Shown here: positions 20,492-44,063 of the stretch, piece after piece
Layout: the number at the start of each line of letters is the position of its first letter
Position numbering within the stretch: the first letter of the stretch is position 1
Assembly (NCBI GenBank): GCA_026770585.1
Contig: MU646611.1
Span: forward strand, 151,884 to 196,066
Direction: 5' to 3'
DNA: 44,183 nucleotides
Origin: Baffinella frigidus
Taxonomy: Eukaryota; Cryptophyceae; Cryptomonadales; Baffinellaceae
Translations under genes and position numbers: made by a program
Notes under the pieces: model-generated
The model's input: the letters and a program-made list of their open reading frames with translations, nothing else
Databases searched by the model: none
Told to the model about the DNA's origin: nothing

Positions 20492-23400
20492 GTAAACCCT
20501 ACACCCTAAACCCTAAACCCTAAACCCTACACCCTAAACCCCAAACCCCAAACACTAAACACTAAACAATAAACACTAAACAATAAACACCAAACAATAG
20601 ATCTGACCCCAAACTCCTCACCAGGAGAAGATGAAAGAGTACGGGGACTACATTGGGTTTCTCGCCTCGAGCGAGGCACACCCTCAACCCTAAACTGATG
20701 AAAACCCGAGTGTATTTATCGGACGTGCCCCGTACTAAAGTTGGACACGCTAGTACTCAATTAGGACGCGCCTGAATTTGGTTCAGGTCGTATGGGGACT
20801 ACATCGGGTTTCTTGCCTCGAGCGAGGTACGCCCTACAGCGCCACTGTTAGGGTTTGGGGTTTAGGAAAAGTTTAGGGTTTAGGGTTTCTCGCGTCGAGC
20901 AAGGTAAACCCTTAACTCTGACCTCTTCTTACACCCTAAACCCTAAGCCCTAAACCCTGAACTCTAAACCCTGAACCCTAAACCCTACACCCTACACCCG
21001 AAACCCTGAACCCTCAACCCTCAACCCTAAAACATCAACCCTATACCCTAAACCCTAAACCCTAAACCCTAAACCCTAAACCCTAAACTCTGAACCCTGA
21101 ACCAGGAGGGCTGGCTGCTCCGTCGGGAGGTGTACGGCCAGGGCTCTGACGAGGTCCACTACACCCTAAACCCCAAACCCTCAACCCTACACCCTACACC
21201 CTAAACCCGGGTTTTTCGCGTCGAGCGATGCGGGCTGGCTCATCCGGAGGGAGGTCTGACGAGGTGCTAAGCCCTATCATCGTATCATCATATCTCCACC
21301 TAGACCCTAAACCCTAAACCCTAAAACCTCGACCCTACACCCTAAACCCTAAAACCGGCCAGGGCTCTGACGAGGTCCGTCTCTGTCCCACTTGTTTTGG
21401 GCTCACGAAATTGGTGAAACTACTCCAGAATCTGCGTCAGTTAGCCTCAGTCTATTTGGGCTCACCAATTTGGCGATCCCAGGCTCTTTCCCGCTCTGAA
21501 GTTGACGGGTGTGTACCGCACACCCAGCATGTCAACTTGAGAATAGTCGGTCAACGAATATTAGGGAGTGTGCGGACTGGATCGGGTTTCTCGTGTCGAG
21601 CAAGGAGGGCTGGCTTAATCCGGGAACAAGTATTTTTCTTCTAAACGCTTGCAATGAAAATTACTACACAACGGGTCACGTCCGAAGCAATCATGTAGTA
21701 ATTTTCGTGCATATTTTTTAAAAGAAAAATACTTGTTCCCGGATGAGGCTGTTCAGGAGGCCAGGGCTCTGACGAGGTGCAACGTCAGAGCCGGGCCTCT
21801 CACCTCCTCCTATGCTGGGCAGGTTGAGGTGCATATCGGAGAGATGGTCGAAGTGATCAACGCCACCGCCGTGCATCTAACTGCCCAGATGTCCCCGAGT
21901 GGCGCGGACGTCTCGGCACACCACGCGTGGTTCCTCCCCTAAACCCTAAACCCTAAACCCTAAACCCTAAACCCTAAACCCTGCACCCTAAACCCTAAAC
22001 CCTAAACCCTAAACCCTAAACCCTGCACCCTGAACCCTACCAACGCCACAACCGTAACCCTAAACCCCCATCCCTCAACCAGGTTCCTCCTGCAGCGTGC
22101 GGACCTGCTCACCCAAACGGGCGCCGACGTCTGGAAGGTGCGTTCAACAGGCGAATAGACGGACACCGCCCCCATATTTGGATTTTCTTGTCAGCAAAAG
22201 GCCGTTTAATATCATTTGTAAACGAAGCGATGCGGTATCGCAACGGTTCGTCTCTGCACACCTCCTCCCCCAAACGGGCGCCGACGTGTGGAAGGTCTAG
22301 CTCTGCCCGAGTTTGATTCTGGCTCGTCCTTAGTAGCCCCTGTAATGTCAAGTGACACCTGCAATGTGTAACCCCTGTAATTTCGAGTAACCCCTGTCCA
22401 CTTAGCAGCCTCCGCGGTCTCCACGGGTGCAGTCCATCTAAACGATTCGTAGTAGAATCTTATCCATTGCTATGGATTCCAACCGGAATTTCCCCCGAGG
22501 ATCCGGGGGAAAACATCTTCGGTCGCTGCTAAGTGGAATGTACCCCACAGGATGGTGCACGGCGCGGCCGCAACCCTCAGCAACCTCGGGTCTTTTGGCG
22601 GGAAATGTAGCGCAATTTTGGCGGGAAACGTAGGGCTATTTCGGCGGGATTCCCGTACCCCCCAAACCCTCGCCCAAACCCCCGCAGAACGGCGCACGTC
22701 GCGGCCTGCTCCGCGCTGCAACCCTGAGCAACCTTGGGGTGCCCCCAACCCCTAAACCCAAACCCAACCCCTGCAGGACGGGACACGGCGGGGCTGATTC
22801 CGCGCCGCACTCCGGGTTGATACTCCGGGTTGATCCGTATTCAAATCCGGGTTGATCCGTAATAATTCTCCGGGTTGATCCGTAATAATACTCTGGGTTG
22901 ATCCGTATTAATACTCCGGGTTGATCCGTAATTAACGCAGTTTCCCGACTGTCCCGTGAACCTTCTCATTTCCAGGACGGCGCTCGGCGTGGCCTGCTCC
23001 GCGCCGCAACCCTCAGCAACCTCGGCTGCTTCCTCATCAAGGCACCCCCCCTGACCCTCAACCCTCAACCCTCCACCCTCCACCCTCCACCCTCAACCCT
23101 CAACCCTCAACCCTGCACCCTCCACCCTCCACCCTCAAACCTCCACCCTCCACCCTCCACCCTCCACCCTCCGAAACCCCAAACGCGGACAGCGGACGCG
23201 TGCCTGTAGAGTTGTTTCGCAGAGGAGAACAGGGATCCGTGCGGCCTATGATGTACTTCTAGTGGACGTGTCTACGTCACTCCGGTCGTCCTACACGGAA
23301 CTGTATCCTCAGATGCTCCGCGGCGCAACCCTGCGCAACCTTGGGTGCTTCCTCTTGAAGGCACCCCCCCCCGACAACCCTCAACCCTAACCGCTAACCC

Positions 23401-25412
23401 CTAAGCCCTAAACCCTACACCCTGCACAATGCACACCGCACCCTCAGCCTAACCCCTCCACCCTCCACCCTCCACCCTCCACCCTCCACCCTCCACCCTA
23501 ACCCCCAACCCCCAACCCCCAACCCCGCCACCAGCGCAACCGCCTCCTCCCGGTGCGCGCATCCCTAGAGGCCGCGCTCGCCCTAGCTGCTATCCCTTAA
23601 GTGACGAGTAGGCTCATACCCCCTACCGTAGGGCCCTAGGACCTGCCTAGGACCTCTCTCGAGGCCGCGCTCGCCCTAGAGCTTCTCTTTACGCCCAAAA
23701 GCCATTGACAATGTTGATAGAATTATACGCCCTTAACAAACACATCATATGGTCGCCGTCCTGACGCATGCGTGGGGGGCACGCCAGGCCAGAAACGACA
23801 TGTTCATGTACGCGTCCATGTACGAGTAACGTTGATTCTCACCCGGGAAACATGCCACAAGTCTAGGAGTTGGCGGGGTTGCTGGGCGCGATAATGCTAA
23901 CCCCTCCAACCTTCACCAGCGCAACCGTCTCCTCCCGGCGCTCGCCTCCCTCGAGTCCGCGCTCGCCCTAGAGGTTTCAACCCTAAACCCTGAACCCTAA
24001 TCCCGAAACCCGAAACCCGAAACCCTAAGCCCTAAACCCTCAACCCTAAACCCTCAACCCTAAACCCTAAACACCAAACCCTAAACCCTAACCCTTAAAC
24101 CCGCAACCCTAAACCTTAAACCCCAAACTCTCAACCCGCAACCCGGAACCCTAAACCCGAAACCCGAAACAGCTGACCCTCCCCTCGGTGTCCGACCCCG
24201 CCGCGACGCACCTCAACCTCTGCGGGGTGCGAACCCCTAAACCCGAAACCCTAAACCCGAAACCCCAAACGCTAAGCCCTAAGCCCTAAACCCTAAACCC
24301 TAAACCCTAAACCCTAAACCCTAAACCCTAAACCCTAAACACTAAACCTCAAACTCTAAGCCCTGAACCCTAAACCCAACCCTGAACCCACCCCTGAACC
24401 CTAAACCCTAAACCCAACCCTAAACCCTAAACTTTAAACCTTGAACCCTAAACCCTAAACTCTTAACCTTGGACCCTAACCCATAAAACCTAACCCCTAA
24501 ACCCAACCCCAAACCATAAAATCTAAACCCCAAACCCTGACTCCTAAACCCCAAACCCTAAACCCAACACCCCACACCCTAAACCCTAAACCCTAAACCC
24601 CAAACCCTAAACCCCAAACCTCAAACCCCAAACCCTAACCCCTGAACCCTAAACAAGGTTCTCTCGCGCCTCGGACGGCACCACCGCGCGCTGCAGGCAC
24701 CCCCCTAAACCAAACACCCTACACCCGAATCCTCAGTAGTAACCCAAACACCCTACACCCGAATCCTCAGTAGTAACCCAAACACCCTACACCCGAAACC
24801 TCAGTAGTGAGGCCCTCTCCAGCGAGGGACGTGAGTGGCCCGCTGGCGTTAGCTTTGAAGCAGGCTGACGAATACTAGGTGGGAGAGAACTCCAGATCTT
24901 TGTAGTACCAAAACTCCCGCAGAGGGTCTTAGAATGTGGTCATGCTGACCAAACTGAGGTGCCGCCAACGATGCAGTGGTCAGTTTCGAGGTCAAGACTA
25001 AAGGTTAAACCCCAAACCCTAAAACTTAAACAGTTTAAAACCTTAAACCCCAAACCCTAAAACATGTCAAACCTTAAACCCCAAACCCTAAAACTTAAAC
25101 CCGGCTAAACCTTAAACCCCAAACCCTCAAACCCAAACATCCCGTATCCACCGCCTCCAGCCTCCTAGAATCCCATCTCGTCGGGTAGCTCCCTTTGGGA
25201 ACGCCACTTTTGGCGTTCAACTATGCCAAAAGTGAAAAATATCCTTATTCCTAAATAAATTAATTCATTCCAATGAATTGACCTTGATTCATTCCGATGA
25301 ATTGACGTTTGACGACCCCAAACAGCACGCAACCGCCGCATCTAACCTCCTCGAATCGCGTCTCGTCGATCTTGACGCGAAGCGGAAAGTCGCGCATGCT
25401 GCCGTGGTGACC

Positions 25413-43543: not shown

Positions 43544-44063
43544 GTATCGTAAACCCTACCTTACACCCTATACCGTACACCTTAAAACCCTGACCATAAG
43601 CCCTGAACCTCTAAAATCTTGAAACTGGGTGTATTGTCGAGCTCGACTCGGTACCTTTCATCATACACCCTGCATCCCTTCACCTTCAAACCCTGAAGCT
43701 AGACCAAATGAACCTGAATCCCTGAAACCCGAAATGACGTCTCGGACGAGTATGACGTCGACCTTGCCTCGGTACCCGAAGCCCGAAGCCCGAAACCCAA
43801 ACCCCGAAACCCGAAGCCTGAAACCCGAAACCCGAAACCCGAAACCCGAAACTCTCACTTTAAAACCCTGATCAGAAACCTTGCACCCGACACACTACAT
43901 CTTACAAGCATGACCCTAAACACTCAACCCCTAAAATCCTGGGCCCGAGTATGACGTTGGCCTCGGTACCTTACACCCTATACCCTACACCTCAAAACCC
44001 TGATCATAAACCCTACACCTCTAAAACCTTGAATCTGGGTGTATTGTCGAGTTCGCCTCGGTA
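43031..44063 (+). repeat. Copies of exon 34
   Basis: 5' copies at 43031-43110 and 43224-43330 (GCGATCGCCC...AGxGACAA). 3' copies with donor at 43637-43652, 43740-43774, 43945-43968 and 44043-44062, ending CCTCG|GTA or similar. A CATATACGTA/TACGTATA AT-rich stretch lies at 43345-43416. Confidence 0.78.

What the first reader, a model, noticed from the sequence alone, without database searches (positions are those of the whole stretch)
20787..44063. Nearly every exon is surrounded by decayed partial copies of itself, sided by splice site
For at least a dozen exons, the 3' end plus donor recurs two to five times downstream, while 5' ends plus acceptor recur upstream (clearest at 41949-42643 and 28227-29230). 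The minus-strand gene shows related copies, though less strictly sided. This looks like repeated tandem duplication across exon-intron junctions, leaving one complete exon in the middle. It would lengthen introns while keeping splicing possible, and supplies many spare splice sites.
Basis: seen in the sequence. Interest (0 to 1): 0.92.

Follow-up and report, generated by a model that had tools for sequence, protein, structure and literature searches.

The report
Exon-end copies piled into introns
In this unidentified eukaryote most exons of the gene examined are flanked by partial, decaying copies of their own ends, apparently left by repeated local DNA duplications that lengthen introns and record how they grew.

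Summary
Of 31 hand-drawn plus-strand exons, 22 have at least one same-strand copy; all 42 copies found lie within 900 bp. Of 34 one-ended copies, 23 are 3'-end copies downstream, 10 are 5'-end copies upstream, 1 is wrong-sided. Random 60-nt segments have a local copy in 11/60 (intron) and 3/40 (other) cases. Minus-strand exons and Pfam-defined kinesin, TCP-1 and myosin exons on other contigs show the same sidedness. Copies decay about 9% at all codon positions while exons differ mainly at third positions: neutral relics. Best explanation: recurrent short tandem duplications straddling splice junctions, with later insertion of TIR elements, telomere-like arrays and other DNA between copies. One locus is a clean 43-bp head-to-tail duplication split by a 115-bp TIR element with 5-bp target duplication. 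Unexplained: in most pairs homology stops a few nucleotides past the splice site (residual intron homology in 7/33 donor and 5/16 acceptor pairs). Intronless copies across two current exon junctions suggest intron gain. Donors show no sign of retention as spare sites. Closest precedent: Daphnia neointrons, with 4-12 bp repeats.

The parts
19816..19887 (+). exon a0 (VAGVLTERKPSMAELARRIAEAEE)
   Evidence: open frame, AG/GT
19890..20004 (.). 115-bp element with terminal inverted repeats (22 of 25 nt) and 5-bp target duplication GAGGT, between exon a0 and its tandem copy
20010..20052 (+). 3'-end + donor copy of exon a0, head-to-tail with the exon end (40 of 43 nt by my count) when the element and one target duplicate are set aside; one search reported it as 19990-20050
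20625..20675 (+). exon a (EKMKEYGDYIGFLASSE), with 3'+donor copies at 20790-20826 and 20883-20903
21106..21153 (+). exon b, with 3'+donor copies at 21356-21374 and 21734-21776
21209..21255 (+). intronless copy spanning the a|b exon junction
   Evidence: 32 of 40
21575..21615 (+). second intronless copy spanning the a|b junction
   Evidence: (35 of 42)
22976..23041 (+). exon e (DGARRGLLRAATLSNLGCFLIK), copies upstream 22563-22594 (internal part) and 22689-22737 (5' part), 3' copy downstream 23314-23360
23920..23973 (+). exon f; near-complete copy 23535-23586 upstream and the one wrong-sided 3' copy 23653-23681
26259..26320 (+). exon k; 3'+donor copy 26599-26621 (100%); intron homology resumes at 99% over 96 nt after unlike stretches just past the donor
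28403..28505 (+). exon m (FAVATFNAGCEMDAMDHLVDAFEHYSQAAKVAAQ); 5' copy 28228-28264 upstream; 3'+donor copies 28639-28714 and 28920-28980, more at about 28606, 29141, 29231 by eye
31244..31466 (+). intron o|p, a CCCTAAA-like array from donor to acceptor
31467..31551 (+). exon p; 3' copy 31643-31679, near-complete copy 31905-31989
31877..31934 (+). intronless copy spanning the o|p junction
   Evidence: (67 of 79, gapless across the junction)
33194..33269 (+). exon q (EHVSVPLGRYSAEELRDMFPPRPTK); 5'+acceptor copies 32448-32480, 32714-32758, 32895-32957; 3' copies 33553-33594 and 33896-33922
35327..35543 (+). exon s; 3'+donor copies 35636-35753 and 35823-35863, one more at 35594-35621; 5' copy 35186-35216
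38380..38466 (+). exon v; 5'+acceptor copy 38221-38258
40033..40096 (+). exon w3; 3'+donor copies 40156-40185 and 40249-40289
42354..42459 (+). exon x (FDDGELDEHFAAVEEGEGASSIVSGSISGFSSLES); 5'+acceptor copies 41949-42019 and 42174-42243; 3'+donor copy 42575-42640
43508..43543 (+). exon y; near-complete copy with donor at 43739-43771, shorter 3' copies ending near 43650, 43965, 44060 by eye
284..389 (-). minus-strand exon F1; 5' copies 566-647 and 1005-1076 (upstream on minus), 3'+donor copy 47-112
3023..3130 (-). minus-strand exon F4; 5' copies 3245-3302 and 3709-3754, 3' copies 2716-2756 and 2576-2616; distant internal copy 734-779
5470..5575 (-). minus-strand exon F7; 5' copies 6366-6409 and 6639-6688

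Best explanation
The copies are neutral relics of recurrent, short local tandem duplications (tens to a few hundred bp) with one breakpoint inside an exon and the other just outside it, past the donor or before the acceptor. Such a duplication leaves the full exon followed by a 3'-end copy with its donor, or preceded by a 5'-end copy with its acceptor. Sidedness and proximity therefore follow from geometry, and purifying selection only has to keep one complete exon. TIR elements, telomere-like arrays and other DNA then insert between copies, often right at the duplicated splice junction, and the intron grows. SHOWN: sidedness, proximity, neutral decay, one clean head-to-tail duplication split by an element, several copies with co-duplicated intron, and presence on other contigs. 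INFERRED: the molecular lesion (slippage or staggered-break fill-in), the order of events at most exons, and the cause of the junction-proximal breakpoints.
For: Only 1 of 34 one-ended copies is wrong-sided, and all 42 lie within 900 bp. Exon a0 is a 43-bp head-to-tail repeat around a 115-bp TIR element with 5-bp target duplication. A kinesin copy continues about 119 nt past the matched exon end, and acceptor-side kinesin copies carry tens of nt. Exon k's intron is 99% identical over 96 nt in the second copy. Codon positions 1, 2, 3: 51/556, 55/555 and 99/562 mismatches, p = 1e-5, for 35 of 42 copies. Of 17 Pfam-defined exons elsewhere, 8 have copies; of 17 same-strand copies 15 are anchored at or near the expected end, 2 are internal, 0 wrong.
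Against: Residual intron homology was found in only 7 of 33 adjacent donor pairs and 5 of 16 acceptor pairs. Matching past the donor is 0-16 nt, median 4, even at 94-100% exon identity (exons x, b). A plain tandem duplication of exon plus long intron should keep intron similarity of equal age. Intron segments have local copies less often than exons (11/60 against 22/31), which random duplication with equal detection would not predict. One wrong-sided copy (exon f) exists, and 9 of 31 exons show no copy.
Confidence: 0.72

Rival explanations
1. Each event is one act of staggered double-strand-break repair: filler DNA (telomere-like array, element or other) is inserted at a break with long overhangs, and fill-in turns the exon end into a long direct repeat on both sides of the insert. 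The exon is then followed by the insert, while the last copy keeps the old intron. This overlaps with the best explanation (both may act), so the odds are not exclusive.
For: It predicts the lack of intron homology after exon and copy (26 of 33 adjacent donor pairs). 9 of 32 classed spacers are rich in telomere-like repeats. Precedents: Daphnia neointrons (PMC4202315, passages) and telomeric-repeat insertion at staggered breaks with flanking duplication in horse (PMC7215372, passages).
Against: Overhangs of about 20-100 nt would be far longer than the 4-12 bp reported in Daphnia. Several copies carry co-duplicated intron. At a0 the insert has its own 5-bp target duplication inside a ready tandem repeat, so duplication and insertion were separate there.
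Confidence: 0.4
2. The copies come from spliced or partly spliced RNA reverse-transcribed into nearby introns.
For: Two junctions (a|b twice, o|p once) have intronless copies, and many copies stop near the splice site.
Against: Copies include the intronic donor GT or acceptor tract, are same-strand, sided and local; RNA copies should scatter. The fused copies equally fit intron gain after the duplication. Of 25 downstream 3' copies tested, 24 are not followed by the next exon's start.
Confidence: 0.06
3. The copies are kept by selection as spare or decoy splice sites, for example for staged splicing of long introns.
For: Many donors survive (GT 19, GC 3 of 26).
Against: That survival is near neutral expectation; exon-copy mismatches fit neutral decay of the copy at all codon positions.
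Confidence: 0.05
4. Assembly artefact (uncollapsed haplotypes, mis-joined contigs).
For: The assembly as held is rich in N: 13 of 20 sampled 10-kb stretches were all N (gaps and withheld stretches cannot be told apart).
Against: Copies differ by 0-27%, are partial and sided, and sided copies were found around exons on eight other contigs (C94, C6, C112, C506, C101, C197, C20, C175).
Confidence: 0.03

Closest known systems
Neointrons formed by staggered double-strand-break repair in Daphnia pulex (PMC4202315; passages read)
   Same: [quoted passage not shown] repeated staggered breaks are held to add internal repeats and lengthen young introns (55 of 90 have internal repeats).
   Different: Their exon repeats are 4-12 bp; here the median is 44 nt (19-108), with up to several copies per exon, most exons of a gene affected, copies carrying splice signals and sided by exon end.
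[quoted passage not shown] review PMC3443670, passages)
   Same: A duplicated segment crosses an intron-exon boundary (potato RdRp).
   Different: There the duplication creates a new intron. Here most copies lie inside an existing intron; introns do not begin or end with copies of the neighbouring exon as the AGGT model predicts.
Introners (PMC9860276, passages)
   Same: A TIR element with target duplication sits at an AG|GT site in exon a0's intron.
   Different: The exon-end copies are local and particular to each exon, not a dispersed element.
Interstitial telomeric sequences inserted at breaks (PMC7215372, passages)
   Same: Telomere-like arrays in introns; flanking duplication at some insertion sites (3 of 66 loci simple duplications in its Table 5).
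   Different: Here arrays fill whole introns and lie almost always in one orientation relative to the gene.
Direct repeats near splice sites (PMC11782384, abstract)
   Same: Direct repeats at intron borders.
   Different: They report 4-30 bp repeats around introns, not multiple sided exon-end copies.

Membership tests
Intron gain by tandem duplication, AGGT model | New intron starts with a copy of the next exon's start and ends with a copy of the previous exon's end | tested here: not met
   30 consecutive exon pairs: mean local scores 5.4 and 5.6 against 5.37 and 5.54 for mismatched pairs
Local tandem duplication | Head-to-tail copies, same strand, adjacent, with co-duplicated flank | tested here: inconclusive
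   Same strand and local: met. Head-to-tail: met at a0. Co-duplicated intron: only 7/33 donor and 5/16 acceptor pairs; 4 of 8 informative kinesin pairs
Staggered-break neointron (Daphnia type) | Direct repeat of exon-terminal sequence on the far side of an insertion | tested here: met
   23 downstream 3'-only and 10 upstream 5'-only copies, donor-side ones separated from the exon by other DNA
Staggered-break neointron (Daphnia type) | Repeat length 4-12 bp | tested here: not met
   median 44 nt, range 19-108; the search could not see repeats as short as 12 nt
Introner | TIR/TSD element whose insertion makes the intron | tested here: inconclusive
   One element with TIR and 5-bp TSD; it lies between an exon end and its copy, intron creation not shown
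Exon duplication / mutually exclusive exons | Complete duplicate exon with both splice sites | tested here: not met
   6 of 42 copies near-complete, the other 36 partial
Retrocopy | Intronless and dispersed copies | tested here: not met
   All 42 copies local and same-strand; intronless joins accepted only at a|b and o|p; poly-A not tested
Spare splice sites in use | Reads spliced at copy donors or acceptors | not testable with these tools
   no RNA data

The most novel reading that the evidence does not exclude
In this genome splice junctions are hot spots for a duplication process whose outer breakpoint falls within a few nucleotides of the splice site. That process, together with insertion of sense-oriented telomere-like arrays and TIR elements, is a main engine of intron gain and growth. 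The sided copies then form a stratified record: copies that predate an intron are intronless across its junction, copies that postdate it are not, so intron births can be ordered and dated inside one genome.
Probability: 0.35. Interest if true: 0.87.

Novelty: new variant of a known kind. Interest (0 to 1): 0.72.

Why it matters
How introns arise and lengthen is a long-standing question, mostly studied from rare recent events with short footprints. Here one gene carries dozens of readable footprints. Intronless fused copies may give internal pre-intron states without needing a relative, and the neutral copies supply a clock. If the junction-proximal breakpoints are real they point to a lesion tied to splice sites or to the AGGT sequence, which would be new.

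Tried and rejected
Rejected: RNA retrocopying, selection for spare sites, assembly artefact, whole-exon duplication (reasons given under rivals and membership). A hypothesis-free test of whether local repeat ends fall on GT or AG more often than expected was weak and mixed: GT 23 against 17.7 expected in 19800-44183, 18 against 9.5 in L010+L018, near or below expectation in most other sets. A test for intron starts and ends matching neighbouring exons was negative. In one search a loose criterion flagged 13 of 30 exon joins as having a junction-spanning match; I accepted only a|b and o|p. A stricter check bears this out: of 25 downstream 3' copies only the one at 21556 is followed by the next exon's start (12 of 18, best other exon 9), and of 16 copies with a 5' end only the one at 31905 is preceded by the previous exon's end (16 of 18, best other 9). 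Pfam scans of two of three plus-strand frames of 20787-35787 and of the three plus-strand frames of L018 gave little. A homology search with the methyltransferase gene to name the organism listed 30 proteins, of which the only one naming an organism was Prymnesium parvum at 35% identity, so the organism stays unidentified. A search for its SSU rRNA did not complete. Random sampling of 20 stretches was inefficient: only 7 of 20 held letters. My first flank comparison was spoilt by overlapping segments for its local scores and was redone without overlap; only its ungapped-run column is used.
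Full report
What was checked. The window is C306:151884-196066 of a 382-Mb, 1364-contig assembly of an unnamed eukaryote. I printed all of it and drew 31 plus-strand exons from open frames with AG acceptors and mostly GT or GC donors. Frames of neighbouring exons fit together: exons a to j joined give a protein with weak TPR matches, below Pfam's cut-off, that span exon joins. Exon borders are by eye; one search lists donors GT 23, GC 3 and 5 others, the latter probably misdrawn by a few bases, as are the donors of minus-strand exons F4 and F7.

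With a shuffle-based threshold, 22 of 31 exons have same-strand copies, 42 in all, every one within 900 bp; two opposite-strand hits were seen. With a slightly different threshold 1 of 31 exons also has a distant same-strand match and 2 of 31 an inverted one. Of the 42 copies, 23 are 3'-only and downstream, 10 are 5'-only and upstream, 6 are near-complete, 2 internal, 1 wrong-sided. Random intron segments have a local copy in 11 of 60 cases and other segments in 3 of 40, against 22 of 31 exons. Four minus-strand exons, picked because they showed self-matches, follow the same rule mirrored, with one internal copy 2.2 kb away.

It is not confined to this window. Exons defined by Pfam homology, not by copies, were taken from other contigs: all 10 TCP-1 matches and 7 of 45 kinesin matches. 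Two of the 7 (C112, C506) were picked because the listing showed a decayed second match. Copies were found at 3 of 10 TCP-1 and 5 of 7 kinesin exons, 3 of 5 without the two picked ones; so outside this gene the share with copies is nearer 6 of 15. Of 17 same-strand copies, 8 are downstream and all reach within 6 nt of the 3' end of the match; 9 are upstream, 7 of them at or near the 5' end (one begins 16 nt in) and 2 internal. None was on the wrong side. L036 is a minus-strand match whose locus is not flipped, so its hit is read as downstream; one inverted copy was seen at L033. A stretch placed without looking (L010) holds two myosin exons: the first has a 3'-end copy downstream, the second a 5'-end copy upstream and two 3'-end copies downstream. 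An exon in stretch L014, noticed through its repeats, has four downstream copies, two reaching the 3' end and two internal.

The copies are neutral relics. For 35 of the 42 copies (exons with an assigned frame), mismatches to the exon are 51/556, 55/555 and 99/562 at codon positions 1, 2 and 3. That is what one expects if the copy drifts about 9% everywhere and the exon changes mainly at third positions. It also supports the assigned frames. Donor GT survives in 19 of 26 downstream copies that reach the exon end, GC in 3 more, so there is no sign of retention beyond chance.

How they arose. A tandem duplication with one end inside the exon must put 3'-end copies downstream and 5'-end copies upstream. 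Copying from or to random places would not, and wrong-sided copies would not obviously be harmful. At exon a0, setting aside a 115-bp element with inverted ends (22/25) and one of its 5-bp target duplicates leaves a gapless 43-bp head-to-tail repeat, 40/43 identical by my count on the printed flanks. In L042 a downstream copy continues about 119 nt past the match and an upstream copy carries acceptor-side intron; L044 and L045 show the same on the acceptor side. These are 4 of 8 informative kinesin pairs, one of the other four being unclear because of telomere-like sequence; 6 further pairs of the 14 aligned (3 kinesin, 3 TCP-1) were uninformative because the aligner locked on shared flank.

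What does not fit plain tandem duplication. Between neighbouring family members, intron similarity above the 98% level of unrelated pairs was found in only 7 of 33 donor pairs and 5 of 16 acceptor pairs, with telomere-like arrays masked. Ungapped matching past the donor is 0-16 nt with a median of 4 over 33 exon-copy pairs. Exon k shows one way this happens: its duplication is 99-100% identical, yet unlike stretches of about 10 and 53 nt follow the first 5 intron bases of exon and copy. So either inserts favour the duplicated splice junction, or many events are single insertions at staggered breaks. Of 32 classed spacers (one of 33 was too short), 9 are rich in telomere-like repeats and 3 are palindromic by a crude test that missed the a0 element.

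Evidence on intron gain. Two copies downstream of exon b join the ends of a and b without the intron (32/40 and 35/42), and one copy joins o and p (67/79, gapless); singles out one a|b copy and the o|p copy from 25 and 16 tested. Copies of a's end inside the a|b intron are 90-92% identical to the exon over their length, while the fused copy at 21556 is 73%. This agrees with the fused copies being older than the intron, though the stretches are short; RNA origin is not formally excluded. Intron o|p is a CCCTAAA-like array from end to end.

Comparison with print. Ten searches of the open library listed no paper whose title or shown abstract describes exon-end copies of this length and density; subscription papers are not held. 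The nearest precedent is Daphnia (PMC4202315, passages read), where staggered breaks leave 4-12 bp exon-terminal repeats and repeated breaks are held to lengthen young introns. Potato RdRp (PMC4974935, abstract only) gives a duplication across an intron-exon boundary. The review PMC3443670, the introner paper PMC9860276, the telomeric-repeat paper PMC7215372 and a chlorarachniophyte genome paper PMC12730881 (not used further) were read in passages. I file this as a new variant of a known kind.

Noticed in passing
19800-44183 and 1-11600; 13 non-overlapping stretches on other contigs: Telomere-like arrays lie almost always as CCCTAAA on the coding strand: 179 to 6 in the plus gene, 30 to 8 in the minus gene, 186 to 6 over 13 non-overlapping homology-oriented stretches, 103 of the 186 from L010. 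In this orientation the repeat unit holds no GT or AG, so it is splice-neutral; several introns are arrays from donor to acceptor (31244-31466, 23974-24172, 21930-22082).
   Followed up: partly
2833-2990, 3412-3587, 6087-6323, 18844-18969, 21613-21749, 26984-27155, 27313-27452, 29449-29590: Palindromic, MITE-like elements scattered through introns and intergenic DNA.
   Followed up: no
42021-42112: A dispersed repeat in the intron before exon x; the listing shows 42 further matches in the genome, mostly to this stretch, and is capped.
   Followed up: partly
36675-36769 and 37275-37369: A 95-nt exact inverted copy covering the start of exon u, evidently recent.
   Followed up: no
17100-18362 (-) and 13562-14272 (+): A Methyltransf_32 gene and an ankyrin gene that each match as one open stretch, so look intronless beside intron-rich neighbours.
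   Followed up: no
G000 assembly: Large parts read N: 13 of 20 sampled 10-kb stretches were wholly N.
   Followed up: no
window exons: Exons tend to end in AG (17 of 31) and begin with G (22 of 31) or GT (10 of 31), as if introns sit at AG|GT sites.
   Followed up: partly
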